A stretch of DNA of 64,000 nucleotides from Geodermatophilus marinus. Lineage in GTDB: Bacteria > Actinomycetota > Actinomycetes > Mycobacteriales > Geodermatophilaceae. This document shows positions 36,184 through 50,760 of the stretch, in pieces. The notes beneath the pieces were generated by a model. It ran no database searches. It was not told where the DNA came from and saw only the letters and a list, made by a program, of their open reading frames with translations. A program made the translations under genes and the position numbers. Position 1 is the stretch's first letter, and each line of letters begins with the position of its first letter. The stretch covers positions 124,001 to 188,000 of the forward strand of contig NZ_QVQH01000005.1 of assembly GCF_003428645.1 (NCBI RefSeq). The letters run 5' to 3'.

Positions 36184-36227
36184 CGGGCATTACCTCCTTC
36201 GGCCCCCGTGCGGGGTCCCGCCGCCGG

Positions 36228-36279
36228 CCCTCCTGCAGGGTCCCGCCACGAGCGTGCGAGTGGTGGGGAGGCAGGAGGG
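36228..36279. repeat. ACCACTCGC-type palindromic element (intergenic copy)
   Basis: CCCTCCTGC at the left and GCAGGAGGG at the right close a hairpin whose centre reads CGCCACGAGCGTGCGAGTGG. On the other strand the core is CCACTCGCACGCTCGTGG, related to the in-gene copy at 36515 and the elements at 53976 and 60911. It lies between two co-directional genes of the homogentisate cluster. Confidence 0.75.
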
Positions 36280-36314
36280 TCCTTCTCCGGCGGGGGGCAC
36301 GGGGGTCCTCTTCT

Positions 36315-37946
36315 CTAGGCCGGGACGGGGGAGGGGATCGGGCAGGCCAGGGACCGCGCCACCGCGCCGGCCACCGCGGCCGGGTCGGTGAGGACGGCGG
36401 CGACGTGCGCGTCGGGGCGCAGCACCCAGAGCTCGCCGGGGCGGGCGCCCAGCGCCTCGGCGAGCAGCCCGCTCGGGTCGAGGTCGCCGATGCGGTGCAC
36501 GGCCACGGGGGGAGGGCCTCCCTGCCCCCCACCACTCGCGAGCTCGCGGTGGGCCCCTGCCGGGAGGCCGGACGAGTCGGGCACCGAGGCGCCGTCCCCG
36601 AGCAGGACGGTGACGCCCTCGCGGGCCAGCCGGCGCAGCCGGACGACGTCCGGCCGGCCCGGCACCGTCACCGGGCAGTCGGGCACCAGCACCCCGGGGG
36701 CGGGCACCGGGACCTCGCCGCGGGCCGGGCGGCCGGGGAACGGGCGCTGCGGGTCGGGGGTGGTGAGGGGGGAGTCGACGTACCAGAACGGTTCGGCCAG
36801 CCGGCCGGAGTCGACCTGCGCCCGCGCGGCCGGGTCCGTCGCCGCCCGCTCGAGCACGTCGAGCCGGTGCGCGGCCTCCTCGGGCGTGCCGGGGACCAGG
36901 AAGCGCATCGTCGCCCCGGTGACGTCGAGGTTCTCCAGGGCCGCGGCGTGCCGCTCGGCGTGGTAGCTCTCCAGCAGTTCCTCCGGCGCCCACCCGTGGC
37001 GCACGAAGGCGATCTTCCAGGCGGCGTTCTCCGCGTCCAGGACCCCCGAGTTCAGCCCGCGCGCCCCGAAGGGGCTGACCAGGTGGGCGGCATCGCCGGC
37101 GACCAGCACCCGCCCGACCCGCATCCGGTCGACCACGCGGGAGTGGAACCGGTAGACCGACTTCCACACGATCTCGTAGCCGCGGTCGCCGATGACCTGC
37201 CGGATCCGCCGGTCCAGCGCCCCGGAGGCCTCTTCGGCGGCCAGGTCGAACTCCGGCGGCACCTGCCAGTCGATCCGGAAGGTCGAGTCGGGGCAGGGGT
37301 GGATGAGCACCTGGCGGCCCGGGTTCCACACCGGGTCGAAGTAGAAGCGCCGCTCGGTCTCCCAGCCGGGCAGGTCGGTGCGGATGTCGCAGATGAGGAA
37401 CTGGTCGCCGAAGGTCTGCCCGTCGAAGTCCAGCCCCAGCACCCGGCGGACGGCGTCCCCCCGGGCGCCGGCGCAGGCGACGAGGTGGCTGCCGCGGACC
37501 TCCGTGCCGTCCGCGCACGCCACGGTGACCCCGCTGCCGTCCTGCGCGATGCCGACCGCCTCCGCGCCCCAGCGCACCTCGATGCGGGGCTCGGCGGCGA
37601 TCCGCTCGTCGAGCAGCTCCTCGGTCTCGCACTGGGAGATGTTGACGAACGGCGGGAAGGGGGAGCGGCCGCGGTCGGCGAAGGCGAAGGAGAACAGCTC
37701 GCGGTCGCGGTGGAAGGTGCGCGCCGTCGTCCACGTGACGCCGCGGCGGGCGACCTCCGCGCCGACGCCGACGGCGTCCCACACGTCGAGGACGTCGCGC
37801 TGCTGGCAGATCGCCTTGCTGCCGACCGGGTCGCGCTCGGGGCGGGCGTCGAGGACGACGACCGGCAGCCCCCAGCGCGCCAGCAGCAGCGCGGCGGTCT
37901 GCCCGACGGGGCCGCAGCCCAGCACGAGGACGGGGAGGTCGCCCAC
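36315..37946 (-). CDS. FAD-dependent aromatic hydroxylase (MhpA/PheA-like)
   Basis: This 543-residue flavoprotein monooxygenase has the FAD fingerprint LVLGCGPVGQTAALLLARWG (about 7-26), the SKAICQQRDVLDVWDAVGVG segment typical of MhpA-like hydroxylases, the DG-type motif near CADGTEVRGSHLVACAGARG, and the second FAD motif RVLVAGDAAHLVSPFGARGLN. A thioredoxin-like C-terminal domain is expected in such proteins. Placed before hmgA, it probably makes homogentisate or a precursor from a monohydroxylated phenylacetate; that is inference. The GTG start lies 3 bp after the MBL-protein stop. A palindromic repeat interrupts the region for residues 460-478. Confidence 0.85.
   Translation of the reverse strand: MGDLPVLVLGCGPVGQTAALLLARWGLPVVVLDARPERDPVGSKAICQQRDVLDVWDAVGVGAEVARRGVTWTTARTFHRDRELFSFAFADRGRSPFPPFVNISQCETEELLDERIAAEPRIEVRWGAEAVGIAQDGSGVTVACADGTEVRGSHLVACAGARGDAVRRVLGLDFDGQTFGDQFLICDIRTDLPGWETERRFYFDPVWNPGRQVLIHPCPDSTFRIDWQVPPEFDLAAEEASGALDRRIRQVIGDRGYEIVWKSVYRFHSRVVDRMRVGRVLVAGDAAHLVSPFGARGLNSGVLDAENAAWKIAFVRHGWAPEELLESYHAERHAAALENLDVTGATMRFLVPGTPEEAAHRLDVLERAATDPAARAQVDSGRLAEPFWYVDSPLTTPDPQRPFPGRPARGEVPVPAPGVLVPDCPVTVPGRPDVVRLRRLAREGVTVLLGDGASVPDSSGLPAGAHRELASGGGQGGPPPVAVHRIGDLDPSGLLAEALGARPGELWVLRPDAHVAAVLTDPAAVAGAVARSLACPIPSPVPA
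36515..36569. repeat. ACCACTCGC-type palindromic element inside the FAD hydroxylase gene
   Basis: GGCCTCCC and GGGAGGCC close a hairpin with the centre CCACCACTCGCGAGCTCGCG. It resembles the intergenic copy at 36228 and is translated as a Gly/Ala/Pro-rich loop (residues 460-478, LPAGAHRELASGGGQGGPP). Confidence 0.7.
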
Positions 37947-37949
37947 GGC

Positions 37950-38912
37950 TCAGCCCTGCAGCTCGGCCCAGACGGCACGGTCGCGCTCGGCGGTCCAGAT
38001 GACGGGCCGCTCGACGCCGGCGAACTCGTCCCACAGCCGGGAGACGTCGAAGGGCAGGCAGTGCTCGAAGATCGGCCAGGCGCCGTACTGCGGGGCCAGC
38101 GCGGCGTGGGTGGCCTCGAACGCCTCCTTGAGCGTGCCGCCGGCGCGGTGCACGTCGCCCACCGTGCGCTGCATGGTGAGCAGGAAGTCGCGGGTCTGCT
38201 CGATGGCGGCGTCGACCTCGCCGCGGCCGCGGGCGATCTTCCCGCGGCCGCCGACCAGCTGCTCGGCCCCGAGGGCCTTGACCCGGTCGAGGGTGCCGGC
38301 GGCCCAGTCGAAGTGGAAGGCGTCGCCGGTGTAGAGCGCGGCCTGGGACTCCACCAGGTCGCCGGCGAACACGATCTCCTGCTCCGGCAGCCAGGCGACG
38401 ATGTCGCCCTCGGTGTGGCCGCGGCCGAGGTGCTCGAGCACCAGCTCGCCGCGGTCCCCGCCGAGCTCGATGGTGAGCCGGTCGCGGAAGGTCATCGTCG
38501 GCCAGGTAAGGCCGGGGATGGACTCGGGCTCCTCGAACAGCCGGGGCATCCGGCCGTACTCGCTCTCCCAGTCCTCCTTCCCGCGCTCGGCGATCAGGTG
38601 CTTGGTCTGCTCGGAGCTGACGACCACCTCGGCGTCGAAGGCGCTGGCGCCCAGCACGCGGACGGCGTGGTAGTGCGACAGCACCAGGTAGCGCACCGGC
38701 TTGTCGGTGTGCTCGCGCAGCCTGGCCAGCCAGCGGCGGGCGGCGACCGGGGTGGCCAGGGCCTCGAAGCAGACGAGGAAGTCCTCGCCCTCGATCGCGC
38801 CGAGGTTCGGGTCGCCCTCGGCGGTCAGCGCGTACACGCCGTCGGCGAGCACCTCGAGGGTCTGCTCCTTGACGCCCAGGTCGGCGGAGGAGGCGAAGGG
38901 CTTGGCGGCCAT
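37950..38912 (-). CDS. MBL-fold metallo-hydrolase with altered metal motif
   Basis: This 320-residue metallo-beta-lactamase-fold protein begins MAAKPFASSADLGVKEQTLE. The first metal motif, usually HxHxDH, reads HYHAVR (in LVLSHYHAVRVLGASAFDA), so the Asp and third His are missing. The second-half motifs GRGHTEGDIVAWLPEQEIVF and AGDLVESQAAL are intact, with a later HFDW. It is first in an operon with the FAD hydroxylase, HmgA and FahA, and has a clear promoter. Its reaction is unknown; a lactone or thioester hydrolase step of aromatic breakdown would fit but is inference. Confidence 0.82.
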   Translation of the reverse strand: MAAKPFASSADLGVKEQTLEVLADGVYALTAEGDPNLGAIEGEDFLVCFEALATPVAARRWLARLREHTDKPVRYLVLSHYHAVRVLGASAFDAEVVVSSEQTKHLIAERGKEDWESEYGRMPRLFEEPESIPGLTWPTMTFRDRLTIELGGDRGELVLEHLGRGHTEGDIVAWLPEQEIVFAGDLVESQAALYTGDAFHFDWAAGTLDRVKALGAEQLVGGRGKIARGRGEVDAAIEQTRDFLLTMQRTVGDVHRAGGTLKEAFEATHAALAPQYGAWPIFEHCLPFDVSRLWDEFAGVERPVIWTAERDRAVWAELQG

Positions 38913-39774: not shown

Positions 39775-41211
39775 ATGACCACCCCGTACTGGGTCGCCGG
39801 CCGGCCGGCCACCGGCACCGAGCCCCTGGAGGTGCGCTCGCCGTGGGACGGCGCCCGCGCCGGCCGGACCACCCTGGCCACGCCCGCGGACGTGGAGGCC
39901 GCGGTCGCCGCGGCGGCCGCCGCCCGGCCCGCCTGCGCCGCGCTGCCCGCCGCCGCCCGGGCCGCCGCGCTGGACGCGGTCTCCCGGCAGCTGGCCGAGC
40001 GGGCCGAGGAGGTGGCCGCGCTCATCACCGCGGAGTCGGGCAAGCCGCTGAAGTGGGCCCGGCTGGAGGTCACCCGCGCGGTCTCGACCTTCCGCTGGGG
40101 TGCCGAGGAGGCGCGCCGCTGGTCGGGCACCCTGCAGCGGCTGGACACCGACCCGGCCGCCACCGGGCGCCTGGCGCTGGTCCGCCGCGCGCCCCGCGGC
40201 CCGGTGCTCGGCATCGCGCCGTTCAACTTCCCGCTCAACCTGGTCGCCCACAAGGTCGCCCCCGCGATCGCGGCTGGTGCGCCGATCGTGCTCAAGCCGG
40301 CACCGGCGACCCCGCTGTCGGCGCTGCTGCTCGGCGAGCTGTTGGCCGGGACCGACCTGCCGGCCGGCGCCTGGTCGGTGCTGCCCACGACCAACGAGGT
40401 CGCCGCCGGGCTGGTCGGCGACCCGCGGCTGCCGGTCGTCTCCTTCACCGGGTCGGTGCCGGTGGGCTGGTCGATCCGCGAGTCGGCGCCGCGCAAGCAC
40501 GTCACCCTCGAGCTCGGCGGCAACGCGGCCGTCGTCGTCGGTCCGGACCAGGGCGACGAGAAGTCCCTCGGCTGGGCGGCCTCGCGCATCGCCACCTTCG
40601 CGATGTACCAGGGCGGGCAGTCCTGCATCTCGGTGCAGCGGGTCTACGCCCACCGCGACGTGGCCGGCGCGCTCACCGAGCGGGTCGTCGCCGCGGTGCG
40701 GGTCCTCGGCACCGGCGACCCGGCCGACCCGGCGACCGACGTCGGCCCGCTGGTCGACGAGCAGGCCGCCCGCCGGGTGGAGAGCTGGGTGGACGAGGCG
40801 GTGGCCGCGGGCGCGACCGTGCTCACCGGCGGCACCCGGGACGGCGCCACCTACGCACCGACCGTGCTCACCGGGGTGCCCTCGACCGCGCGGGTCTCCT
40901 GCGAGGAGGTGTTCGGCCCGGTCGTCGTCCTCGAGGCCGTCGACTCGCTCGACGAGGCCTTCGCGCGGGTCAACGACAGCCGCTTCGGGCTGCAGGCCGG
41001 CGTCTTCACCCGCGACCTGCAGGTGGCGTTCCGGGCCGCGCAGGTGCTCGACGTGGGCGGCGTGGTGATCGGCGACGTGCCCAGCTTCCGCGCCGACCAG
41101 GTGCCCTACGGCGGGGTCAAGGACTCGGGCACCGGCCGGGAGGGTGTGCGCGCCGCGATGGAGGACCTCACCGAGGAGCGGGTGCTCGTCCTCACCGGCA
41201 TCGACCTGTAG
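39775..41211 (+). CDS. Aldehyde dehydrogenase (succinate-semialdehyde dehydrogenase-like)
   Basis: This 478-residue NAD(P)-dependent aldehyde dehydrogenase has the catalytic residues Asn151 (in APFNFPLNLV), Glu246 (LELGGN) and Cys284 (GGQSCIS). The coenzyme-binding IVLKPAPATPLSALLL and SFTGSVPVGWS lie between them. A step from succinic semialdehyde to succinate would complete the GABA route of this region, but the substrate is not proven. The ATG has GAGGAGGACGC upstream. It is convergent with the second aldehyde dehydrogenase gene, separated by a palindromic terminator-like repeat. Confidence 0.85.
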   Translation: MTTPYWVAGRPATGTEPLEVRSPWDGARAGRTTLATPADVEAAVAAAAAARPACAALPAAARAAALDAVSRQLAERAEEVAALITAESGKPLKWARLEVTRAVSTFRWGAEEARRWSGTLQRLDTDPAATGRLALVRRAPRGPVLGIAPFNFPLNLVAHKVAPAIAAGAPIVLKPAPATPLSALLLGELLAGTDLPAGAWSVLPTTNEVAAGLVGDPRLPVVSFTGSVPVGWSIRESAPRKHVTLELGGNAAVVVGPDQGDEKSLGWAASRIATFAMYQGGQSCISVQRVYAHRDVAGALTERVVAAVRVLGTGDPADPATDVGPLVDEQAARRVESWVDEAVAAGATVLTGGTRDGATYAPTVLTGVPSTARVSCEEVFGPVVVLEAVDSLDEAFARVNDSRFGLQAGVFTRDLQVAFRAAQVLDVGGVVIGDVPSFRADQVPYGGVKDSGTGREGVRAAMEDLTEERVLVLTGIDL

Positions 41212-41276
41212 CCGCCGCGCGCCTCGTCCCTGGCCCGCTCCTCCGCGCCCCCGCCCCCGCCCCCGCCCCCGCCCCC

Positions 41277-41346
41277 GTGATCATGGGCTTCTTGCCGGCG
41301 ACACGCGCCGGCACGCCGGGCGGGCCGGCAAGAAGCCCATGATCAC
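41277..41346. repeat. GATCATGGGC-type palindromic element (copy 1), likely bidirectional terminator
   Basis: Perfect 22-bp arms begin GTGATCATGGGCTTCTTGCC and are separated by 26 bp. It lies between two convergent aldehyde dehydrogenase genes. The outer arm matches the element at 58777-58860, also between convergent genes. CCCCCG repeats precede it and GGGAGGGGGCC repeats follow. Confidence 0.85.
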
Positions 41347-41348
41347 CC

Positions 41349-41427
41349 CGGGAGGGGGCCGGGAGGGGGCCGGGAGGGGGCCGGGAGGGGGCCGGGAGGA
41401 GGCCGGGAGGAGGCCGGGAGAGGGCCG
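41349..41427. repeat. 11-bp G-rich microsatellite
   Basis: About seven tandem units of CGGGAGGGGGC and slight variants (CGGGAGGAGGC) run up to the 3' end of the second aldehyde dehydrogenase gene. One strand is a G-run array that could form G-quadruplexes. Confidence 0.85.
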
Positions 41428-41434
41428 GGGCGGC

Positions 41435-42880
41435 TCAGCTCTCGATGTTGGCCATGACGTGCTTGACGCGGGTGTAGTCCTCGAACCCGTACATCGAGAG
41501 GTCCTTGCCGTAGCCGGAGTGCTTGAACCCGCCGTGCGGCATCTCGGCGACCAGCGGGATGTGGGTGTTGATCCACACGCAGCCGAACTCGAGCGCCCGG
41601 CTCATCCGCATGGCCCGGCCGAAGTCCTTCGTCCAGACGCTGGAGGCCAGGCCGTACTCGACGCCGTTGGCCCAGGCCAGGGCCTGCTCCTCGTCGCTGA
41701 ACCGCTGCACGGTGATCACCGGGCCGAAGATCTCCCGCTGCACCATCTCGTCGTCCTGGCGCAGGCCGGCGACGACGGTCGGCTCGACGAAGAAGCCGCG
41801 GTCGCCCTGCCGGCGCCCGCCGGTGGTGACCTCGGCGTGGTCCGGCGCCCGGTCGAGGAACCCGGTGACGTGCGCCAGCTGGGCGGCGTTGTTCACCGGC
41901 GGGACCAGCGCGTCCTCGTCCCCGGCGCCCCCGTCGAAGGTGGTCCGCGTGCCGCGGGCCTGCTCGGTGAGCGCGGCGACGAAGTCGTCGTGGATGCCCG
42001 GCCCGGCCAGCACCCGGGTGGCGGCGGTGCAGTCCTGGCCGGCGTTGAAGTAGCCGGCCACCGCGATGGCCTCCGCCGCGGCCTCGAGGTCGGCGTCGTC
42101 GAACACCACGACCGGCGCCTTGCCGCCGAGCTCGAGGTGCACCCGCTTGACGTCGCGGGCCGCGGTCTCGGCCACCTGCATCCCGGCCCGGACCGACCCG
42201 GTGATCGACACCATCTGCGGGGTGCGGTGCTCGACCAGCGCGCGGCCGGTGTCCCGGTCGCCGCAGATCACGTTGAACACGCCCGGGGGCAGGAACTCCG
42301 CGGCCAGCTCGGCCATCCGCAGCGTGGTCGCCGGGGTGGTGTCGCTGGGCTTGAGGACGACGGCGTTCCCGGCGGCGATCGCCGGGGCGAACTTCCAGAC
42401 CGCCATCATCATCGGGTAGTTCCACGGCGTGACCTGGCCGATGACGCCGACCGGCTCGCGGCGGATGAACGAGGTGTGCCCGGCCATGTACTCCGCGGCG
42501 GCCCTGCCCTCCAGGTGGCGGGCCGCACCGGCGAAGAACCGGATCTGGTCGACCATCGGCGGGATCTCCTCCGACGCGGTCAGCCCCAGCGGCTTGCCGG
42601 TGTTGCGGCTCTCCAGTGCCACCAGCTCCTCGCCGTGCGCCTCGATGGCGTCGGCGAGGCGGAACAGCGCCAGCGACCGCTCCGAGGGGGTGGCGTCCCG
42701 CCAGGTCTCGAAAGCGCCCGCGGCCGCCCGGTACGCGCGGTCGACGTCCTCGGGGGAGGACACCGGCGCGGATGCGAAGACCTCACCGGTCGAGGGGTCC
42801 ACCAGGTCCATCCGGCGGCCGTCGGTGGTGTCCACGTGCTCGCCACCGACGAAGTTGCGCAGTTCGAGCTTCTCGCTCAC
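41435..42880 (-). CDS. Gamma-aminobutyraldehyde dehydrogenase-like
   Basis: This 481-residue aldehyde dehydrogenase resembles PatD/YdcW, which oxidises 4-aminobutanal to GABA. The catalytic residues are Asn154 ([10 protein letters not shown]), Glu250 (LELGGK) and Cys284 (GQDCTAATR). Other typical parts are [15 protein letters not shown] and [20 protein letters not shown]. The GTG start lies 6 bp after AGAGGGATC. It reads in the same direction as the small 127-residue gene and the FAD/Fe-S pair upstream, so these four genes form one operon. Their GntR regulator is divergent. Confidence 0.87.
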
Positions 42881-42920
42881 GGGAGATCCCTCTCGTCCGA
42901 CTCCACGACTGATCCGGTCG

Positions 42921-43304
42921 TCATGATCCTGCGGGACCACCGATCGGTCCAGCCGCAGGGCCGTCAGCCTGCGGATCCGTGGCCCCGGGCTCGGCGGCTC
43001 CCGCCTCGAGCTCCGCCTCGACCTCCGCCAGCAGCGCCGACCCGGTGACCACCCGGCCGGCGAAGTGCCGGTGCATCCACTCCAGGTGGTCGTGCCGGCT
43101 GCGCATGATCCGCAGCGTGTCCCAGTTGGGGAACACCTGCTGCAGCACGTGGGTCTGCATCAGCCGCGGGTCGACCTCGTAGACGTGCTCGAAGGTCGTC
43201 TGCGCCACCTCGCTGACCCGCAGCGGCGCCGGCGGCGTGTGCTGCTCGGCGAACCGGTAGGGCGCCGTCGCGGCCGGGCCGCCGGGCTGCTCATCGGTTC
43301 TCAT
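42921..43304 (-). CDS. Hypothetical protein between aldehyde dehydrogenase and FAD oxidoreductase
   Basis: I do not recognise this 127-residue protein. It is soluble, with a Pro-rich start and tail and a central helical part ([59 protein letters not shown]). The His/Arg-rich [15 protein letters not shown] could bind metal or cofactor. Its ATG overlaps the FAD-oxidoreductase stop by 14 bp, which implies translational coupling and a protein partner. A third subunit of that enzyme is a reasonable guess, not shown. Confidence 0.65.
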
Positions 43305-44871
43305 CGGTGGTGTCCCTCCCGTAGGCCCGGTCGAGCAGGTACTTGCCCGGGTTCATGACGTTGTTCGGGTCCAGGGCGCGCTTGACCTCGAGCATCACGT
43401 CGAAGCCCTTGCCGAGCTCCTGCGGCAGGAGGTCGACCTCGCCCTCGCGGCAGGAGCCGTGGCAGGCGCTCATCGAGCCGCCGTGGGCGATCGCGACCGC
43501 GGCGATGTCGCGCTTGGCCTGCACCCAGGCCGCCCAGGCCACGTCGTCCAGGCGCTGCTCCCAGATGCCCACGTCGATCTCGGTGAGGTAGTCGACGCCG
43601 GTGGCGGCCGAGGTGTAGGCGAACATCCCCCAGTCGTCGAAGACGTCGGTCTTCCGGCGCAGGTCGGCGACGATCTCGTGCCAGGCGCGGCTGACGGCGG
43701 GGACGGCGGAGTAGTTCACCGCGGCGTCCTCGCAGTGCCAGGACATCGGGATGACCTGGCCGTCCTTGGTGCGGCCGTGCAGCGGGGTGGCGTACCGGTC
43801 GTGCCGGGCCGCCCAGTCGCCCTCGCTGATCTCGTCGCCGAGGTAGCGGGCGCGGTGCTCCCTGGCGATGCGGAACAGCCGCCGCCCGCCGGCCCGGACC
43901 TCGTCCTCGTAGCCGTACATGACCGCGCAGACCAGCGCGCGGACGTCGGTGGGCTGCGGGATGTAGGCCTCGTCGTCCCGCCGCAGGTAGGCGACCTTGT
44001 GCTCGTCGAAGAGGACGGCGCCGGCGAAGGTGGCCACGCCGGCCCGCGCGAGCGCGCCCACGCAGGCGTAGGCGTCGTCGTAGCTGTCGAACGCCCAGAA
44101 CGGCGAGAGCTCGGCCTCGGGCTTGGGGAACAGCTTGAGCGTCGCCTTCGTGGCAATGCCCAGCGTGCCCTGGTGGCCCATGAACAGGTGCTTGAGCTGG
44201 TACCCGCTGGAGCTCTTGCTGATCTTGCCGCCGATGCCGTCGCCGACGTGCAGGACCTCGCCCGTCGGCAGCACGTGGTCGAAGCTGAGCACCAGGTCGC
44301 GGGTGTGCCCGTAGCGGGAGCCGATGAGCGACCAGCCGCTGGTGCCGATCCGGCCGCCGACCAGCGAGCACGGGTAGGACGCCGGGTCGTCGGGGTAGAA
44401 CAGCCCGTGCCGCGCCAGCCGCTCGTTGAGCTTGAGCATGTTGATGCCGGTGCCGACGGTGACGGTCCGGTTGACCAGGTCCAGCTCGTGGACCTGGTTC
44501 ATCCTCTTGACGTCGACGACGATCCCCCGGCGGTGCGGGACGGCGCCGTCGGTGAGCCCGGTGCCGCCGTCCCGCGGGACGACGGGGATCCGCAGGTCGT
44601 TGGCGATCTTCACGACCTCGGCCACCTGCTCGGTGGAGGTGGGCAGCACGACCGCGTCGGGCACCCGCTCGGACCAGCGGTGCACCGGGAACGGCGCGGG
44701 CACCCGCGCGCGGTTCCAGCGGTCGGTCTTGGCCAGCAGGACCTGGTCGTCGGCGAGCACCCGCCGCAGCGCGGTGACCAGGGTGGTCAGCGCCGCGTCG
44801 TCCAGCGGCTCGCGGGTGAACGGCGCGGTGCCGATCGGCTCGGCCCCCAGGGTCGGTTCGGTCGTCGTCAT
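43291..44871 (-). CDS. FAD-binding oxidoreductase (GlcD/D-lactate dehydrogenase-like)
   Basis: This 526-residue flavoprotein belongs to the FAD_binding_4/FAD-oxidase_C group (vanillyl-alcohol oxidase fold), with glycolate oxidase GlcD and D-2-hydroxyacid dehydrogenases. The PP-loop region reads VVPRDGGTGLTDGAVPHRRG. NRTVTVGTGINMLKLNERLA and GGRIGTSGWSLIGSRYGHTR follow, and the C-terminal PNNVMNPGKYLLDRAYG is typical. It lies two bases after the stop of an Fe-S protein gene. The pair likely oxidises a hydroxyacid or amine-derived acid and delivers electrons to quinone. The substrate is unknown. Confidence 0.85.
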   Translation of the reverse strand: MTTTEPTLGAEPIGTAPFTREPLDDAALTTLVTALRRVLADDQVLLAKTDRWNRARVPAPFPVHRWSERVPDAVVLPTSTEQVAEVVKIANDLRIPVVPRDGGTGLTDGAVPHRRGIVVDVKRMNQVHELDLVNRTVTVGTGINMLKLNERLARHGLFYPDDPASYPCSLVGGRIGTSGWSLIGSRYGHTRDLVLSFDHVLPTGEVLHVGDGIGGKISKSSSGYQLKHLFMGHQGTLGIATKATLKLFPKPEAELSPFWAFDSYDDAYACVGALARAGVATFAGAVLFDEHKVAYLRRDDEAYIPQPTDVRALVCAVMYGYEDEVRAGGRRLFRIAREHRARYLGDEISEGDWAARHDRYATPLHGRTKDGQVIPMSWHCEDAAVNYSAVPAVSRAWHEIVADLRRKTDVFDDWGMFAYTSAATGVDYLTEIDVGIWEQRLDDVAWAAWVQAKRDIAAVAIAHGGSMSACHGSCREGEVDLLPQELGKGFDVMLEVKRALDPNNVMNPGKYLLDRAYGRDTTDENR

Positions 44872-44873
44872 GG

Positions 44874-46403
44874 TCAGTGCCCCCCGCACCCGCAGCCGGA
44901 ACCGGAACCGCAGCCACCGCCGCCGCAGCCGCCGGAGCTGCCCCGGGTGCGGCGTGCCCGCCCGGGGACGCCGGTGCGCTCCTGCGCCAGCCGCCGGTCG
45001 CCGACGTCCCCGCGGGAGCCGCCGACGGAGATGCCGAGCGACTGGGCGAACAGCTCGTGCAGGTCGACGACGTCGATGTCCTCGGCGTCGCCGGCCTCCG
45101 ACAGCGGCCGCTCCGACCACGGGCAGGCGCTGACGAGGGTGTCGACGTCGAGCTCGGCGGCCCGCTCCAGCCGCAGCGCGCTGATCTTGCGCGTCAGCTC
45201 GGGCTTCTCGATGGGCAGGCCACCGCCGCCACCGGAGCAGTAGGACCACTGGGTGACCCGGTCGACGTCCTCGAACCGCAGCCCGGGGATGGCCCGGAGC
45301 AGCTCGCGGGGCTCCTGCCAGATGCCCTTGCGCTTGTTGAGCCGGCAGGGGTCGTGGTACGTGATCGCGCGGTCGACCGGGACGGACGGGGTCAGCCGGC
45401 CCTCGCGGAGCAGCTGGGCCAGGACCTCGATCACGAGCACGACCTCGATGTCGAACTCCTCGCCGAAGTACTTCGGGTAGTCCTCGGTGAAGCTGATGTA
45501 GTCGTGCGGGTCGAGCACCAGCACCCGCCGGGTGCCGGTGGCCCGCCAGTTGTCCAGGTTGTGGCGGGCGAAGCGCTGCGCCTGCTCGGCGTAGCCCATC
45601 TCCGCGGCGGGGCCGCCGCAGCACCACTGCTCGCCCATGAGCCCGAACTCGTAGCCGGCCATCTGCAGCACCTGGGCCACCGCCCGGGGCACCGACGTCC
45701 GGTAGAACGCCGCCTCGCAGTCGACGAACAGCACCGTCTCGCCGCCGACCGGGATGTCCAGGCCCTCGGCCCAGTCGCGGACCGACTCCTGGCCGACCGG
45801 CGTCTCGCCGAGCACCGGCTCGTGGGTGCGCAGGTCGGTGCGCTCGTTCCAGATCTGCCAGTTCGGCTGGTGGACGCCGCTCTCGACGGCCAGCGAGCGC
45901 ACCGCCTTCACGACGTCGACCGTGCGGGTGCGGAAGCGGTAGAAGTCGCCGGTGAACAGGGTATTCGGGCAGCGCAGCTCGCAGGCGCCGCACTGGGTGC
46001 AGTTGACGTAGTCGGCGGCGATGTCGGCGATGTCGAGCTCGCCGCGCTCCATCGCGATGACGTTGGCGTGGAAGGCGGTGGGCGTCCAGGACTCGTTGCG
46101 TTCGACCTGGGTGACCGGGCAGACCTCGCGGCAGAACTTGTGGCCCGACGAGAAGCAGTTGTAGGAGGCGTTGCGCCACTGCTCGACGAAGGCGGCCGTC
46201 CGTGGGTCCTCCCGCGGCGGGGGGACCGGGCCGGCGAGCGTCTCGGGGAAGTCCGCCAGCTCCGGCGGGTTGGACGGGGCCCCCGGCGTGAACGGCTCGG
46301 ACAGGGCGTCGATCTGCCGGGGGGCGTCGACCGGCGGGGCGCCGTCGCCCGCGGCGGTGCGGGGGGTGGCCCCGGGCGCCCGGTCGGGCTGGACCTGTGT
46401 CAC
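44874..46403 (-). CDS. (Fe-S)-binding CCG-domain protein with Cys/Gly-rich tail
   Basis: This 509-residue protein resembles GlcF/GlpC/HdrD. A ferredoxin-like region has an atypical first motif (Cys83, Cys91, Cys95 in NCFSSGHKFCREVCP) and a classic CxxCxxCxxxCP (CTQCGACELRCP, Cys135-145). Two CCG domains follow (EQWCCGGPAAEMGY and WSYCSGGGGGLP with YHDPCRLN before it). The last ~20 residues are Gly/Cys/Ser only, with four cysteines and a final His, which is unusual. The GTG start has CGAGGAGC upstream. It heads the operon with the FAD enzyme and a 127-residue protein, and is divergent from GntR. Confidence 0.85.
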   Translation of the reverse strand: MTQVQPDRAPGATPRTAAGDGAPPVDAPRQIDALSEPFTPGAPSNPPELADFPETLAGPVPPPREDPRTAAFVEQWRNASYNCFSSGHKFCREVCPVTQVERNESWTPTAFHANVIAMERGELDIADIAADYVNCTQCGACELRCPNTLFTGDFYRFRTRTVDVVKAVRSLAVESGVHQPNWQIWNERTDLRTHEPVLGETPVGQESVRDWAEGLDIPVGGETVLFVDCEAAFYRTSVPRAVAQVLQMAGYEFGLMGEQWCCGGPAAEMGYAEQAQRFARHNLDNWRATGTRRVLVLDPHDYISFTEDYPKYFGEEFDIEVVLVIEVLAQLLREGRLTPSVPVDRAITYHDPCRLNKRKGIWQEPRELLRAIPGLRFEDVDRVTQWSYCSGGGGGLPIEKPELTRKISALRLERAAELDVDTLVSACPWSERPLSEAGDAEDIDVVDLHELFAQSLGISVGGSRGDVGDRRLAQERTGVPGRARRTRGSSGGCGGGGCGSGSGCGCGGH

Positions 46404-46451: not shown

Positions 46452-46479
46452 GCTTAACCTATGGATTCAACGGTTAAGC
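46452..46479. promoter_or_regulatory. Candidate GntR operator in the divergent region
   Basis: GCTTAACC-N12-GGTTAAGC, perfect 8-bp arms in an A+T-rich island between the Fe-S protein gene and the GntR gene. The position suits repression of both. The sequence is longer and wider-spaced than the classic FadR-type site TGGTNNNACCA, so assignment rests on position and symmetry. Confidence 0.6.
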
Positions 46480-46531
46480 TCCCGCTGCCGGGGTGTCACA
46501 CTTCGTGGCAGGACCCTTCCAGGAGGCGACC

Positions 46532-47314
46532 GTGCAGCTGCTCAGCGGTGACGCCCGGCGCGCCGTCTTCGCCCCGCTGGACGACGGCGCGCTGCGCAGC
46601 GAGGCGGTGGTGCGCCGCGTCGGCAGCGCCATCGCCCTGGGCCTGCTGGCCGACGGCGAGCAGCTGCCCACCGAGACCGACCTCGCCACCATGCTCAAGG
46701 TCTCCACGGTGACCCTCCGGGAGGCGCTGGCCGAGCTGCGCAAGCTCGGGCTGGTGGAGACCCGCCGCGGGCGCGGCGGCGGCAGCTTCGTGCGGGCCCG
46801 CGACGACGTCCTGGCCGAGCTGGCCGAGGCCCGCCTGGTCGAGCTGGGCACCACCGACCTGCGCGAGCTCGGCGACGTGCACGCCGCCGTGGCCGCGGCG
46901 GCCGCCCGGCTGGCCGCGGTGCGTGCCTCCCGCACCGAGATCGCCCGGCTGCGCGACATCGTCGACCGGCTGGCGTCGGCCGGGTCGGTCACCGGCCAGC
47001 GGCGGATCGACGGCCGGTACTACATCGAGCTGGCGGCCTGCGCCCAGTCGGTGCGGCTGACCATGCAGGAGATGGACCTGCACCTGGAGCTGGGCCAGCT
47101 GCCGTGGCCGCCGGCGCACTCGCCCGGCCTCCTCGACGTCATCGTCGCCGGGCACCGGGCCGTCGTCGACGCGATCGAGCACCGGGACGCGGCCTCGGCG
47201 CGCGCCCTCACCGAGGCGCACATCGAGACCCGCACGCTCTGGTCGGTCGAGCTGCGGCTGCAGCGGCTCGGCGGCGCCGCCCCCGCGGCGGGCAGCCGCC
47301 GGGAGGTGTCGTGA
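46532..47314 (+). CDS. FadR/GntR-family transcriptional regulator
   Basis: This 260-residue regulator has an N-terminal winged helix (AIALGLLADGEQLPTETDLA, VSTVTLREALAELRKLGLVE, TRRGRGGGSFV) and a C-terminal FCD-type helical effector domain (LRELGDVHAAVAAAAARLAA, RRIDGRYYIELAACAQSVRL, HRAVVDAIEHRDAASARALT). The GTG at 46532 is chosen because AGGAGG lies 5 bases upstream. It is divergent from the Fe-S/FAD operon and overlaps a cache-domain gene by 4 bp. It probably controls both sides in response to a carboxylate or amine intermediate. Confidence 0.88.
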   Translation: MQLLSGDARRAVFAPLDDGALRSEAVVRRVGSAIALGLLADGEQLPTETDLATMLKVSTVTLREALAELRKLGLVETRRGRGGGSFVRARDDVLAELAEARLVELGTTDLRELGDVHAAVAAAAARLAAVRASRTEIARLRDIVDRLASAGSVTGQRRIDGRYYIELAACAQSVRLTMQEMDLHLELGQLPWPPAHSPGLLDVIVAGHRAVVDAIEHRDAASARALTEAHIETRTLWSVELRLQRLGGAAPAAGSRREVS

Positions 47315-48030
47315 CGTCCGGGCGGGCGGGGGAGGCGGCGCGGGTGGCGGCCGCGGTCTCCGGACTCGTCGAGCAGGTCTTCGCCACCGTCGACCGGGTG
47401 CACGAGGCGGTGCTGCGCTCGGTCGAGCGCTCGGGGCTGCCGGCCACGCGCTGGGTGCTCCCCGAGGGGGTGCAGCTCCTGCTGCGGGCACCCGGGCAGC
47501 TCGCCGTCGGGCTGGGGCTGGTCGTCGCGCCGCGGGCCGAGGAGGGGCTGCCGCTGCGCCTGGAGTGGTGGCAGGCCGACCCGGACGGCGGCGAGGTGCA
47601 CACCCTGGAACCGGACCTGCGCCCCAGCAGCCTGGGCTACTACGACTACACGACCGCCCCGTGGTTCGACGTCCCGCGCCGGACCGGGCGGCGCCACGTC
47701 TTCGGCCCCCACGTCGACGTGCACGGCACCGGCCGCTACGTGCTCACGCTGACCGAGCCGGTGCTGGCCGGCTGCGGGTTCGTGGGCGTGGCCGGCGCCG
47801 ACGTCCCGGTGCGCCGGTTCGAGACCTCCGTGCTGCGGCGGCTCGGCGGGGCGGTGGCGCCCTTCCTGCTGCTCAACGACGAGGACCGCGTCGTCCTCTC
47901 GACCTCGCCGGGGTGGCTGGTCGGCGACCTGCTCGCGGCGGACGCCGTCCCGGAGGGGCCGGTGGCCGGGATCGGCGGCACCCCGTGGCGGCTGGTCCTC
48001 GTCGACGCGCGGAGCCGGCTCGACGCCTGA
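47311..48030 (+). CDS. Stand-alone cache-domain protein
   Basis: This 239-residue protein lacks membrane helices and signal peptide, yet has a cache-like sensor pattern: an N-terminal helix (ARVAAAVSGLVEQVFATVDR), PSSLGYYDYTTAPWFDVPRR, FGPHVDVHGTGRYVLTLTEP and GVAGADVPVRRFETSVLRRL. Cache domains usually sit outside the membrane in receptors, so a cytosolic form translationally coupled to a GntR regulator (GTGA overlap) suggests a small-molecule binding partner. An APC permease gene follows on the same strand after 154 bp. Confidence 0.75.
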   Translation: MTSGRAGEAARVAAAVSGLVEQVFATVDRVHEAVLRSVERSGLPATRWVLPEGVQLLLRAPGQLAVGLGLVVAPRAEEGLPLRLEWWQADPDGGEVHTLEPDLRPSSLGYYDYTTAPWFDVPRRTGRRHVFGPHVDVHGTGRYVLTLTEPVLAGCGFVGVAGADVPVRRFETSVLRRLGGAVAPFLLLNDEDRVVLSTSPGWLVGDLLAADAVPEGPVAGIGGTPWRLVLVDARSRLDA

Positions 48031-48184: not shown

Positions 48185-49714
48185 GTGACCCCACCCGGCG
48201 CCCACAGCGCGGACGACGCCCAGCTCGCCGCCCTCGGTTACACCAGCGCGTTCCACCGCAGGATGGGCCTGTGGGCCAACATGGCCCTCGGGTTCACCTA
48301 CCTGTCGCCGCTGGTCGGCGTCTACTCGCTGTTCGCCTACAGCCTCTCCATCGGCGGGCCGCCGGCGATCTGGTGGATCGTCATCGTGGGGGCCGGGCAG
48401 CTGCTGGTCGCGCTCGTCTTCGGGGAGGTGGTCTCCCAGTACCCCCTGGCCGGTGGCATCTACCCGTGGACCCGGCGGCTGTGGAACCGGCGCTACGCCT
48501 GGATCGTCTCGTGGGTCTACATCTGGGCGATCATCGTGACCGTCACCGCGGTCGCCGAGTTCGGCGGCGGCTTCGTGGCGGCGCTGTTCGGTGTCACCGC
48601 CACGCCCGCGGTCGTGCTGCTCACCGCGGTGGGGCTGCTGGTCATCGCCTTCGTCGTCAACTACAGCGGCACCCGGATGCTGGCCCGCATCGCCAAGATC
48701 GGCCTGGCCGCCGAGCTGGTCGGTGTCATCGCGCTCGGCCTGTTCCTGCTGCTGTTCCGCCGCGAGCAGCCGTTCACCGTCTTCTTCGGCACCCTCGGGG
48801 CCGGCGGTGGGGACGCCTACCTCGGGGTCTTCCTGGCCGCGGCGCTGTCCGGGTTGTTCCTGTTCTACGGCTTCGAGGCCTGCGGCGACGTCGCCGAGGA
48901 GGTCAACGACCCGACCCGCCAGATCCCGCGCGCGATGATCCTCACCATCCTGGTCGGCGGGGTGTCCGGCTTCCTCTCCTACGCCGGGTACGTGCTGGCC
49001 GCGCCGGACGCGCAGCTGTCGGCCGTCATCGCCGGCGAGGACACCGACCCGATCCCCACGATCCTGGAGAGCTCGCTCGGCACCGCCGGGTCCAAGGTCT
49101 TCCTGGTCGTGACCGTCGTCGCCTTCATCTCCTGCGTGCTCTCGCTGCAGGCGGCCGGCAGCCGGTTGCTCTACGCCTTCGCCCGCGACCGGATGCTGCC
49201 GGCCAGCGGCTGGCTGTCGCACGTGTCCAGCCGGCACGCCGTCCCCACCAACGCCCTGCTGGTCGTGTGCGTGGTGCCGGTGCTCATCTGCCTGTTCGTG
49301 TACTTCCAGCCCGACTCGCTCGCGCGCGTCACCGCCTTCGCCGTCTGCGGGATCTACGTGTCCTTCCAGGCCGTCGTCCTCGCCGCGCTGCGCCAGCGGC
49401 TGCTGGGCTGGCGTCCCGCCGGGCTGTGGAACCTCGGCTCCGCCGGCCTGGCGGTCAACGTGCTCGCCCTGGCCTACGGGGTCTTCGCCCTCGTCCTGCT
49501 GATCAAGCCGGCGCCCGGCACGGAGACCTTCCTCGACCGCTGGATCGTGGCCATCGGTCTGGCCTTCGTCATGGGCAGCGGCCTTCTCTACCTCCTTCTC
49601 GCGCGGCCGGACCGGCACTCCGCCCACATCCCCGAGGGCGATGCCCGGGAGGTGGCCGCACAGCTCCAGCAGATCCGGCGCGACAGCCGCGCCGCGGTGA
49701 GTGAGGAGATCTGA
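48185..49714 (+). CDS. APC-superfamily amino acid/amine permease
   Basis: This 509-residue inner-membrane transporter has 12 predicted helices. Typical parts are HRRMGLWANMALGFTYLSPL in helix 1, FGEVVSQYPLAGGIYPWTRR, YGFEACGDVAEEVNDPTRQI and RLLYAFARDRMLPASGWLSH. It resembles GABA/choline-type APC permeases. GAGGAG precedes the GTG. The stop and the ATG of the F420-type oxidoreductase share one base (TGATG), so the two are coupled. The substrate is probably an amine or amino acid linked to GABA metabolism. Confidence 0.87.
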   Translation: MTPPGAHSADDAQLAALGYTSAFHRRMGLWANMALGFTYLSPLVGVYSLFAYSLSIGGPPAIWWIVIVGAGQLLVALVFGEVVSQYPLAGGIYPWTRRLWNRRYAWIVSWVYIWAIIVTVTAVAEFGGGFVAALFGVTATPAVVLLTAVGLLVIAFVVNYSGTRMLARIAKIGLAAELVGVIALGLFLLLFRREQPFTVFFGTLGAGGGDAYLGVFLAAALSGLFLFYGFEACGDVAEEVNDPTRQIPRAMILTILVGGVSGFLSYAGYVLAAPDAQLSAVIAGEDTDPIPTILESSLGTAGSKVFLVVTVVAFISCVLSLQAAGSRLLYAFARDRMLPASGWLSHVSSRHAVPTNALLVVCVVPVLICLFVYFQPDSLARVTAFAVCGIYVSFQAVVLAALRQRLLGWRPAGLWNLGSAGLAVNVLALAYGVFALVLLIKPAPGTETFLDRWIVAIGLAFVMGSGLLYLLLARPDRHSAHIPEGDAREVAAQLQQIRRDSRAAVSEEI

Positions 49715-50760
49715 TGAAGTTCAGCTACGCGATGCTGCCCGACTACCCCCTCGAGGAGTCGTTGCGGGCGATCAAGCTGGCCGACGAGCTCGGCTTCCAC
49801 GCGGTCTACGCCGCCGACGAGACGTGGCACAAGGACCTCTGGCTGCTGTTCGCCGCCGCGTCGCAGCAGACGTCCCGGGTCCGGATGGGCCCCAGCGTCT
49901 CGGCGGTGACCCTCCGGGAGCCGACCCTCATCGCCCAGGCCGCGGCGACGCTCGACGAGCTGACCGGGGGGCGCGCCGAGGTGGTGCTCTCCAGCGGCAA
50001 CTTCGGCCTGCTCGCCCAGTACAAGACGGACTGGACGAAGACCAAGCCGCTGTCGCGCGTCGTCGAGGGCGTGACGGTGATGCGGACCTTCCTCGACGAG
50101 GGCGCCATCACCTTCGACGGCGAGTTCTTCTCCTACGAGGGGCTGTTCACCTTCGCCCGCCCGGTGCAGGACCACCTGCCGGTCAAGATGGGCGCCATGC
50201 GCGGGCCGCGCTCGTTCCAGGCGGCGGCCGAGCACTCCGACGGCTGCCACCACGCCCTCAGCTACACCCGCGAGGCCTACGAGTACGCCGCCGAGAACCT
50301 GCGCATCGGGGCCGAGCGGGCCGGCAAGGACTGGACGACGCTGGACTTCGGCGCGTGGGTGGTCGTCTCTGTGGGGCGGGACTCCGCCGCGGCGAAGGAC
50401 GCCGCCCGCAGCATGGTGGGCATCTACGCCTCCTCGATGCCGGCCGAGCAGCTCGAGCGCAACGGCGTCGACCCGGTCAGCCTCCAGCCGATCATCGAGG
50501 CGATCGCCGGCGGGGACCTCGCCCGCGGCATCGAGCTGACCACCCCGGAGATCGCCGAGAAGCTCTCCTTCTCCGGCACCCCGGAGGAGGTCACCGCGAA
50601 GATCAAGGAGATCCAGCCGACCGGGGTCAACCACCTCGTCGCGGCCATCACCGACGCCTCGCTGGTCAAGGCCTTCACCGGCCGGGAGCTGGCCGGGGTC
50701 GCCACGGTGGAGGAGCAGCTCCGGCTGATCCACGACGAGGTGATGCCCGCCTTCGCGTGA
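49714..50760 (+). CDS. LLM-class F420-dependent oxidoreductase
   Basis: This 348-residue luciferase-like TIM-barrel protein resembles F420-dependent methylene-tetrahydromethanopterin reductases: FSYAMLPDYPLEESLRAIKL, FHAVYAADETWHKDLWLLFA, GPSVSAVTLREPTLIAQAAA and PVKMGAMRGPRSFQAAAEHS. Actinobacteria use coenzyme F420 widely, so a redox step on an amine- or aldehyde-containing substrate is plausible. The substrate is not known. It is coupled to the APC permease and followed by a hairpin terminator. Confidence 0.85.
   Translation: MKFSYAMLPDYPLEESLRAIKLADELGFHAVYAADETWHKDLWLLFAAASQQTSRVRMGPSVSAVTLREPTLIAQAAATLDELTGGRAEVVLSSGNFGLLAQYKTDWTKTKPLSRVVEGVTVMRTFLDEGAITFDGEFFSYEGLFTFARPVQDHLPVKMGAMRGPRSFQAAAEHSDGCHHALSYTREAYEYAAENLRIGAERAGKDWTTLDFGAWVVVSVGRDSAAAKDAARSMVGIYASSMPAEQLERNGVDPVSLQPIIEAIAGGDLARGIELTTPEIAEKLSFSGTPEEVTAKIKEIQPTGVNHLVAAITDASLVKAFTGRELAGVATVEEQLRLIHDEVMPAFA

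What the first reader, a model, noticed from the sequence alone, without database searches (positions are those of the whole stretch)
41435..46403. Four-gene FAD/Fe-S/aldehyde dehydrogenase operon with an unknown small protein
A GlcF-like protein, a GlcD-like flavoenzyme, an unrecognised 127-residue protein overlapping it by 14 bp, and a PatD-like aldehyde dehydrogenase are in one operon. A membrane-linked oxidation that feeds an aldehyde or acid step is implied, but no described pathway known to me has this set.
Basis: partly seen in the sequence, partly recalled or inferred. Interest (0 to 1): 0.55.

Follow-up and report, generated by a model that had tools for sequence, protein, structure and literature searches.

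The report
Predicted amine-oxidation cluster with unnamed protein
A soil bacterium carries two back-to-back gene sets that look like a machine for taking up and oxidising an amine, and one of its parts is a small protein of an apparently unnamed family that was found beside one particular kind of flavin enzyme every time we looked.

Summary
The 127-aa protein (p127) is a genuine family without a convincing database match. Searches with the flavoenzyme (E<=1e-100) found 26 genomes, and p127 lay beside it in 26 of 26. The aldehyde dehydrogenase is dispensable (18 of 25 named loci). The GlcD-like protein lacks the metal-ligand motifs of D-lactate/glycolate dehydrogenases. An amine substrate is suggested by three things. 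The ALDH passes the aminobutyraldehyde-DH subfamily cut-off. Two distant clusters (2 of 38 loci scanned) add native amine dehydrogenases, one also an ammonium transporter. The dCache protein matches the amine receptor TlpQ best, the amino-acid receptor PctA nearly as well, keeps the amine-binding Asp residues and lacks the carboxylate-binding Arg (0 of 13). My reading: GlcD-GlcF-p127 is a three-part FAD/Fe-S dehydrogenase for an amine or amino alcohol. Substrate and p127's role are inferred, not shown. New variant of a known kind.

The parts
44874..46403 (-). GlcF-like Fe-S protein (509 aa): N-terminal 4Fe-4S motifs, two CCG-type stretches, Cys/Gly-rich tail
   Evidence: Pfam CCG 2.8e-21 (two stretches), Fer4_8; below the cut-off of each of the 10 NCBIfam models listed; in 25 of 25 named loci
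43291..44871 (-). GlcD-like FAD dehydrogenase (526 aa), divergent subfamily without the metal-ligand motifs
   Evidence: FAD_binding_4 4.7e-37, FAD-oxidase_C 1.6e-14; family alignment A3; comparison with motif-bearing GlcD copies; model nearest to mLDHD
42921..43304 (-). p127, small protein without a named family, found beside this GlcD subfamily in every genome checked; overlaps GlcD by 14 bp
   Evidence: No convincing Pfam/NCBIfam/PDB match; beside GlcD in 26 of 26 genomes; model pLDDT 75, pTM 0.34, no PDB match
41435..42880 (-). Aldehyde dehydrogenase of the aminobutyraldehyde-DH (PatD-like) subfamily, 481 aa; non-core member
   Evidence: NF010000 719.4 bits vs cut-off 615; 4dal, 1wnb and 6c43 best in PDB; in 18 of 25 named loci, one of them cut by the contig end
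46456..46477 (.). Conserved AACC-N12-GGTT inverted repeat, possible regulator operator between the two operons
   Evidence: Only match in the window with up to 3 mismatches; exact form in 16 of 19 loci L016-L034; alignment
46493..47314 (+). FadR/GntR-type regulator with FCD domain
   Evidence: FCD 7.5e-16, GntR 5.1e-13; in 24 of 25 named loci
47311..48030 (+). Stand-alone dCache-like protein (239 aa), predicted intracellular amine sensor / co-regulator
   Evidence: dCache_1 4.5e-8, 33.4 bits, below gathering score 45; family profile A4 hits 6fu4, PctA, 6f9g McpU; in 24 of 25 named loci
48185..49714 (+). APC-superfamily permease
   Evidence: AA_permease_2 3.9e-45; best NCBIfam TIGR03428 and TIGR00907, both under cut-off; in 22 of 25 named loci
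49714..50760 (+). LLM (luciferase-like, Mer-like) enzyme
   Evidence: Bac_luciferase 4.6e-52; PDB Mer 8qpl/8qq8 9.5e-43; in 23 of 25 named loci, one of them (L017) a remnant of 109 of 348 residues; in 10 of 15 GlcD-bearing genomes tested

Best explanation
Two divergent four-gene operons form one regulated amine-oxidation module. The APC permease brings in an amine or amino alcohol (inferred). The FadR-type regulator, probably with the stand-alone dCache protein as amine-binding co-sensor, controls both operons through the AACC-N12-GGTT site (site conserved; its use is inferred). GlcD (FAD), GlcF (Fe-S clusters) and p127 work together as a dehydrogenase. The flavin takes a hydride at a carbon next to N or OH and the Fe-S protein passes the electrons on, in some lineages perhaps to ETF and a membrane protein, elsewhere perhaps directly to quinone (inferred). 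p127 is most likely a third subunit or obligate partner of GlcD/GlcF (association shown by genomics, contact not shown). The aldehyde product is oxidised by the aminobutyraldehyde-type ALDH where present. The LLM enzyme, or in two distant clusters native amine dehydrogenases, handles a further C-N redox step (inferred).
For: p127 with GlcD: the same 8 of 296 phylum genomes have both; 26 of 26 GlcD-found genomes have p127 beside it. GlcD: E of EHG is Cys and HxGDGNxH is absent in 13 of 13, so not the usual 2-hydroxyacid site. Amine side: ALDH passes NF010000 aminobutyraldehyde DH, and so does the ALDH of cluster L091 (684.4 vs 615). Clusters L091 and L112 hold an amine dehydrogenase related to 6iaq (L091: 1.1e-156) and a second, AmDH4-like gene (L112: 6g1m 9.1e-58; a 61% copy in L091), L112 also an ammonium transporter. 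dCache profile hits TlpQ 6fu4 (1.4e-9) and McpU 6f9g (3.7e-7); the Asp equivalents of TlpQ D210/D239 are invariant in 13 of 13 and the PctA R126 position is never Arg, 0 of 13 (residues from PMC6234866 and PMC10104139, passages read). ETF beta/alpha and a hydrophobic protein follow p127 in L088.
Against: No substrate is shown. The amine dehydrogenases are in only 2 of 38 loci scanned and not in the window's own cluster; ETF was seen in one. PctA, an amino-acid receptor, scores nearly as well as TlpQ (1.8e-9); the Asp residues serve both receptor kinds, so the dCache argument rests on one missing Arg, and TlpQ Y158 is Tyr in 0 of 13 here. APC models fit amino acids too; one cluster (L059) has an NCS1-type permease instead, and L091 has a PucR regulator. 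ALDH, LLM and amine dehydrogenase are each absent from some clusters; L117 and L057 have none of the three within the 19 kb held, and L087 has neither LLM nor amine dehydrogenase within 12 kb (its only ALDH hit is 38%). None of the structure hits listed is named as an amine dehydrogenase. p127 has no confident stand-alone fold.
Confidence: 0.45

Rival explanations
1. A 2-hydroxyacid or polyol route: GlcD-GlcF is a divergent quinone-linked 2-hydroxyacid (or alcohol) dehydrogenase, the ALDH handles a hydroxy-aldehyde upstream of it, and p127 is an assembly factor.
For: Fold and best PDB relatives are D-lactate/2-hydroxyacid dehydrogenases (mLDHD, LctD, 3pm9); FCD regulators often bind carboxylates (recalled).
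Against: Both metal-ligand motifs changed (His to Tyr in the FAH/FAY stretch, EHG to CHG); two GlcD-like copies with intact motifs are in the same genome, one with a GlcE-like gene after it; amine dehydrogenases and an ammonium transporter in two related clusters do not fit. The NCBIfam GlcD cut-off is no strong argument: 213.6 vs 567.9 here, but the motif-bearing copy also misses it (503.7).
Confidence: 0.17
2. A nitrogen-heterocycle or secondary-amine route (pyrrolidine-, piperidine- or hydantoin-like, or N-alkyl side chains): the flavin enzyme makes a cyclic imine or splits an N-alkyl bond, LLM or AmDH works on the imine, and the ALDH takes the ring-opened amino-aldehyde.
For: 1-Pyrroline and 4-aminobutanal interconvert (recalled); LLM and AmDH are both candidate C-N redox enzymes and did not occur together in the clusters seen; NCS1 permease in L059.
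Against: No ring-opening or hydrolytic enzyme was seen in the conserved set; clusters with neither LLM nor AmDH exist (L057, L087, L117).
Confidence: 0.18
3. A one-carbon route: the LLM enzyme is a Mer-like methylene-pterin reductase and the module takes methyl groups off an N-methyl compound.
For: LLM is closest in the PDB to Mer (9.5e-43).
Against: LLM is far below the Mer equivalog cut-off (178.9 vs 348.7); two LLM-bearing genomes, G133 and G326, show no CofH match, so F420 is doubtful there; no folate-binding demethylase was seen in the conserved set; five of 15 GlcD genomes tested show no LLM (two of them only 78% and 89% complete).
Confidence: 0.08
4. p127 is a regulator, chaperone or separate enzyme rather than a subunit, and its co-occurrence reflects maturation or control of GlcD/GlcF (a question apart from the three routes above).
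For: The predicted model is a hairpin and helices with pTM 0.34 and no structural match; small adjacent proteins can be chaperones.
Against: Strict pairing (26 of 26) with tight gene coupling (14-bp overlap here) and an invariant core fit a subunit as well; this cannot be decided here.
Confidence: 0.3

Closest known systems
GlcD/GlcF of glycolate oxidase and D-lactate/D-2-hydroxyacid dehydrogenases (mLDHD, LctD, 3pm9)
   Same: FAD_binding_4 plus FAD-oxidase_C fold beside a CCG Fe-S protein
   Different: Metal-ligand motifs replaced, conserved (R)VPAPFPVHRW, WHCEDA and ACHG blocks, a constant small partner, no GlcE in the operon
PatD/YdcW-type gamma-aminobutyraldehyde dehydrogenase
   Same: ALDH passes the NF010000 subfamily cut-off; 4dal, 1wnb and 6c43 are the three PDB hits at E<=1e-130
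   Different: Below the TIGR03374 equivalog cut-off (565 vs 909.3); partners differ from putrescine routes known to me
Native amine dehydrogenases (MsmeAmDH 6IAQ, AmDH4 6G1M)
   Same: Relatives of both kinds sit inside two distant versions of the cluster (L091, L112)
   Different: Not in the window's own cluster, and in 2 of 38 loci scanned; elsewhere they occur without it (L111, L113, L114)
Mer-type LLM enzymes (F420-dependent methylene-pterin reductase)
   Same: LLM fold and best PDB match
   Different: Far below the Mer cut-off; found in two genomes without a CofH match
TlpQ/McpU amine receptors (dCache)
   Same: TlpQ (6fu4) is the best profile match of the dCache family; amine-binding Asp residues kept
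   Different: Stand-alone protein beside a GntR regulator, not a chemoreceptor; the amino-acid receptor PctA scores nearly as well; binding untested

Membership tests
GlcD glycolate oxidase / D-2-hydroxyacid dehydrogenase | FAD_binding_4 and FAD-oxidase_C domains | tested here: met
   127.2 and 54.7 bits, both over gathering score
GlcD glycolate oxidase / D-2-hydroxyacid dehydrogenase | Metal-ligand motifs HxGDGNxH and EHG (role of the motifs recalled) | tested here: not met
   13 of 13 have CHG, and Tyr where motif-bearing copies of the same genome have the His of FAH
GlcD glycolate oxidase / D-2-hydroxyacid dehydrogenase | NCBIfam equivalog cut-off | tested here: inconclusive
   TIGR00387 213.6 vs 567.9, but the motif-bearing copies of the genome miss it too: 503.7 and 376.5
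GlcF glycolate oxidase Fe-S subunit | CCG domain and 4Fe-4S motifs; GlcF equivalog score | tested here: inconclusive
   Domains present; PRK11274 42.4 vs 333 not met
Aminobutyraldehyde dehydrogenase (PatD-like) | NF010000 subfamily cut-off | tested here: met
   719.4 vs 615
Aminobutyraldehyde dehydrogenase (PatD-like) | TIGR03374 equivalog cut-off | tested here: not met
   565 vs 909.3; activity itself not testable here
Mer (F420-dependent methylene-pterin reductase) | TIGR03555 equivalog cut-off | tested here: not met
   178.9 vs 348.7
Mer (F420-dependent methylene-pterin reductase) | Host makes F420 | tested here: inconclusive
   CofH in 13 of 15 genomes at E<=1e-30 (12 over cut-off); no match in G133 and G326, which carry the LLM
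TlpQ/McpU-type dCache amine receptors | Asp equivalents of TlpQ D210 and D239, and no carboxylate-binding Arg at PctA R126 | tested here: met
   D136 and D164 in 13 of 13; R126 position A, T, Q or M, 0 of 13 Arg; mapping is mine
TlpQ/McpU-type dCache amine receptors | Tyr equivalents of TlpQ Y208 and Y158 | tested here: inconclusive
   Y208 position Tyr in 11 of 13 (His in the window and L016); Y158 position Tyr in 0 of 13
dCache_1AM | Complete published AM motif | not tested
   Motif residues seen in passages of PMC10104139 only; not mapped in full
dCache amine sensors | Amine binding | not testable with these tools
   Needs calorimetry or thermal shift
Any named family for p127 | Pfam, NCBIfam or PDB match | tested here: not met
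   No convincing match for 20 members; Foldseek none at E<=10 with a low-confidence model

The most novel reading that the evidence does not exclude
GlcD-GlcF-p127 is a new three-part class of flavin/Fe-S amine (or amino-alcohol) dehydrogenase: a GlcD-fold enzyme that lost its 2-hydroxyacid metal site, works on a C-N substrate, and needs a small subunit of a previously unnamed family, under an intracellular dCache amine sensor paired with a FadR-type regulator.
Probability: 0.33. Interest if true: 0.7.

Novelty: new variant of a known kind. Interest (0 to 1): 0.52.

Why it matters
This subfamily lost the motifs that go with that reading and has a constant small partner that the family databases searched do not name. 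If it oxidises amines, it would add a GlcD-fold enzyme to amine catabolism, and could offer a physiological setting for some native amine dehydrogenases, enzymes of interest in biocatalysis. It also suggests a cytosolic dCache protein acting with a GntR-family regulator, which can be tested directly.

Tried and rejected
p127 as a chance ORF or frame artefact: rejected. p127 as part of a known family: single sequence and 20-member profile against the PDB, 20 members each scanned against Pfam and NCBIfam, and Foldseek gave nothing convincing. HI0074 at 0.0039 in 3 of 20 members, next to other scattered weak hits, was taken as chance. Plasmid search with p127: no match; with GlcD at E<=1e-60: one Georgenia record in which GlcD is cut at the record end, so p127 cannot be judged there. 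Plain glycolate/lactate oxidase: set aside on residues, not on the NCBIfam cut-off, which motif-bearing copies of the same genome also miss. Conserved perfect palindromes in intergenic regions: my first script was crude, did not scan the window and found no common one; the AACC-N12-GGTT site came from the alignment, is exact in 16 of 19 loci L016-L034 and was not found in the 10 more distant loci scanned. Paper searches for the gene set: no paper; three listed, seen only as listing and abstract start, not read. Native AmDH paper PMC11164908: passages read; it reports that a genomic-context analysis gave no clear evidence of metabolic function for the enzymes it was discussing there. Amine dehydrogenases in L111, L113 and L114 lie outside this cluster and were not used as support. 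Rows not counted as independent: L090 is taken as the same contig as L034 and L092 as L028 (equal contig lengths); one search hit G011 (three in-frame stops) was dropped. In one search the G455 match was found with its own p127 as query; the independent match is 38% over 47 aa. The GlcD model is middling (pLDDT 67) and was used only for fold. Only 15 of the 26 GlcD-bearing genomes were searched for LLM and CofH.
Full report
The observation. On the minus strand the window holds a GlcF-like protein (46403-44874), a GlcD-like flavoprotein (44871-43291), p127 (43304-42921) and an aldehyde dehydrogenase (preferred start 42880, end 41435). GlcF and GlcD are 2 bp apart, GlcD and p127 overlap by 14 bp, and 40 bp separate p127 from the ALDH. 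Domain searches give CCG/Fer4, FAD_binding_4 with FAD-oxidase_C, nothing, and Aldedh. The finding is confirmed as described. It is half of the unit: a divergent operon follows on the plus strand with a FadR/GntR-type regulator (46493-47314), a stand-alone dCache-like protein (47311-48030), an APC permease (48185-49714) and an LLM enzyme (49714-50760). An AACC-N12-GGTT repeat at 46456-46477 lies between the operons. The longer pattern built around it has one match in the window at up to 3 mismatches, with a shuffle mean of 0.00, and the repeat is exact in 16 of 19 loci L016-L034.

p127 is a real family without a name that I could find. Among 61 genomes, mostly the same genus and family, 15 were listed; one (G011) has three stops in frame and I dropped it, leaving 14. 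By genus, the window's genome and 12 of 25 other genomes of its genus have it, so the cluster is accessory even there. A collection scan gave 25 named loci, also in Tamaricihabitans, Nonomuraea, Streptomyces abyssalis, Prauserella and two MAG records labelled Pseudonocardiaceae bacterium and uncultured actinobacterium. The core is about 85 residues; 10 columns are invariant among 20 diverse members. No member has a convincing match in Pfam, NCBIfam or the PDB. The model (pLDDT 75, pTM 0.34) is a hairpin followed by helices, without a structural match, which fits a protein that folds on a partner (inference).

p127 follows one flavoenzyme. A p127 profile (E<=0.001) and the GlcD protein (E<=1e-100) picked the same 8 of 296 phylum genomes, own genome included. 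Pooling the GlcD searches (8 of 296, 17 of 298 and 2 of 248) gives 26 different genomes; two smaller searches (1 of 36, 2 of 16) added none. p127 lies beside GlcD in 26 of 26. In G128 the pair is read across a contig break (L061, L062). In G455 p127 is weak: 38% over 47 aa to the window's copy, found only with its own sequence as query. More distant GlcD relatives, below that limit, were not surveyed. In the own genome the next GlcD copy is 39% identical.

Core and optional members. In the 25 named loci, which were selected by p127 and so cannot test p127 itself: GlcF-GlcD-p127 25 of 25, FadR 24, dCache 24, LLM 23, APC 22, ALDH of this type (at least 50% identity) 18. One LLM (L017) is a remnant covering 109 of 348 residues, and one ALDH (L032) is cut by the contig end. 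In the eight distant loci compared, I saw no further shared gene apart from other ALDH-family hits. Versions from other lineages differ. L058, L060 and L063 have GlcF, GlcD, p127 and LLM. L059 has the same with an NCS1 permease. L057 and L117 have only the core with permease, regulator and dCache in the 19 kb held; L087 has the same in 12 kb, its only ALDH hit being 38%. The LLM was found in 10 of 15 GlcD-bearing genomes tested, out of the 26; G455 and G465, two of the five without it, are 78% and 89% complete.

The flavoenzyme is probably not a glycolate or lactate dehydrogenase. The nearest solved relatives by sequence and by fold are mostly D-2-hydroxyacid dehydrogenases, then alkyl-DHAP synthases (model pLDDT 67, best hit mLDHD at 25% identity). 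In that family HxGDGNxH and EHG carry the metal ligands (recalled; titles name H405A as a variant of mLDHD). In 13 of 13 members of A3 the EHG motif is CHG, and Tyr stands where two motif-bearing GlcD copies of the same genome have the His of FAH. One of these copies (L067/L068) lies on the window's contig about 3-5 kb before the window start and is followed by a GlcE-like gene (183.8 bits, below the 284 cut-off). The NCBIfam GlcD cut-off does not separate them: the window's protein scores 213.6, the motif-bearing copies 503.7 and 376.5, all under 567.9. Conserved blocks (RVPAPFPVHRW in 12 of 13, WHCEDA in 13, ACHG in 13) suggest changed chemistry. Activity was not assayed.

Evidence for an amine. 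First, the ALDH passes the NCBIfam aminobutyraldehyde dehydrogenase subfamily cut-off (719.4 vs 615), although not the stricter equivalog (565 vs 909.3); the L091 ALDH passes too (684.4). Second, in L091 the run is AMP-ligase, ALDH, GlcF, GlcD, p127, APC, amine dehydrogenase, PucR, FadR, dCache, all on one strand. The amine dehydrogenase matches 6iaq at 1.1e-156, the entry that PMC11164908 (passages read) names MsmeAmDH. In L112 a homologue (74%) sits between p127 and an ammonium transporter, and beyond GlcF lie ALDH, AMP-ligase and an AmDH4-type gene (6g1m, 9.1e-58); L091 has a 61% copy of that gene too. Against this, the amine dehydrogenases are in 2 of 38 loci scanned. Third, the dCache family profile hits 6fu4 (1.4e-9), PctA (1.8e-9) and McpU 6f9g (3.7e-7). 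PMC6234866 (passages read) gives 6fu4 as TlpQ, whose Y208, D210 and D239 hold the primary amine of histamine, and 6F9G as McpU with putrescine. Mapped through the printed alignment, D210 and D239 are D136 and D164, invariant in 13 of 13; Y208 is Tyr in 11 and His in 2; Y158 is Tyr in 0 of 13. PMC10104139 (passages read) states that R126 of PctA binds the carboxylate of amino acids; that position is never Arg here, 0 of 13. The mapping is mine and rests on offset counting, not on a solved structure.

Evidence that weakens it. PctA scores almost as well as TlpQ, and the Asp residues serve both kinds of receptor. Permease models fit amino acids as well as amines. NCS1 and PucR hint at heterocyclic nitrogen in some lineages. 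ALDH, LLM and AmDH are each dispensable. The LLM, nearest to Mer, could be taken for F420-dependent, but G133 (98% complete) and G326 (93%) carry it without a CofH match, while 13 of 15 genomes have one, so the cofactor is open.

Electron path. L088 has ETF beta, ETF alpha and a protein with hydrophobic stretches (by eye; only sub-threshold hits to membrane subunits) directly after p127. By analogy with ETF-linked dehydrogenases (recalled) this suggests electrons leave through ETF to the membrane. In the window no such genes are adjacent among those examined, so direct quinone reduction or an ETF encoded elsewhere remain possible.

Verdict. Shown: the eight-gene unit, the strict p127-GlcD pairing within the genomes searched, the loss of the classical motifs. 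Inferred with moderate support: amine or amino-alcohol oxidation. Inferred with weak support: p127 as structural subunit, dCache as co-sensor, LLM/AmDH as alternative C-N enzymes. I file GlcD and GlcF by fold only, not as glycolate oxidase members. No paper with this gene set was found in searches, which cover open-licence PMC papers only.

Noticed in passing
window 41348-41429: 11-bp tandem repeat, 7.5 copies, unit CCGGGAGGGGG, right after the ALDH stop, with a 6-bp repeat CGCCCC at 41246-41277.
   Followed up: no
window 39775-41211: A second aldehyde dehydrogenase convergent with the operon; a close copy (over 80% identity) stands near the cluster in 13 of the 25 named loci. Its role is unknown.
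   Followed up: partly
window 33773-38912: Fumarylacetoacetase-like, homogentisate-dioxygenase-like, FAD monooxygenase and metallo-beta-lactamase-fold genes in a row: an aromatic (homogentisate-type) catabolic group.
   Followed up: no
window 44874-44960: The GlcF-like protein ends in a Gly/Cys-rich tail (GGCGGGGCGSGSGCGCGGH), a possible metal-binding extension; in loci L016-L033 the tblastn match to GlcF stops at residue 485-487, before this tail.
   Followed up: no
L017 3332-3646: In the Geodermatophilus sp. TF02-6 locus the LLM gene is a remnant: only residues 1-85 and 325-348 of 348 match, while the rest of the cluster is kept.
   Followed up: no
L059 8931-9152: A 73-aa unknown protein sits between the NCS1 permease and p127 in G133; no Pfam match.
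   Followed up: no
L070 1-3967: Georgenia plasmid NZ_CP094291.1 carries the GlcF, GntR and cache genes with GlcD cut at the record end: a version of the cluster on a replicon deposited as a plasmid.
   Followed up: partly
L111 9109-14325: An amine dehydrogenase gene, opposite strand, beside a class-III aminotransferase and another ALDH, outside this cluster: perhaps another amine setting.
   Followed up: no
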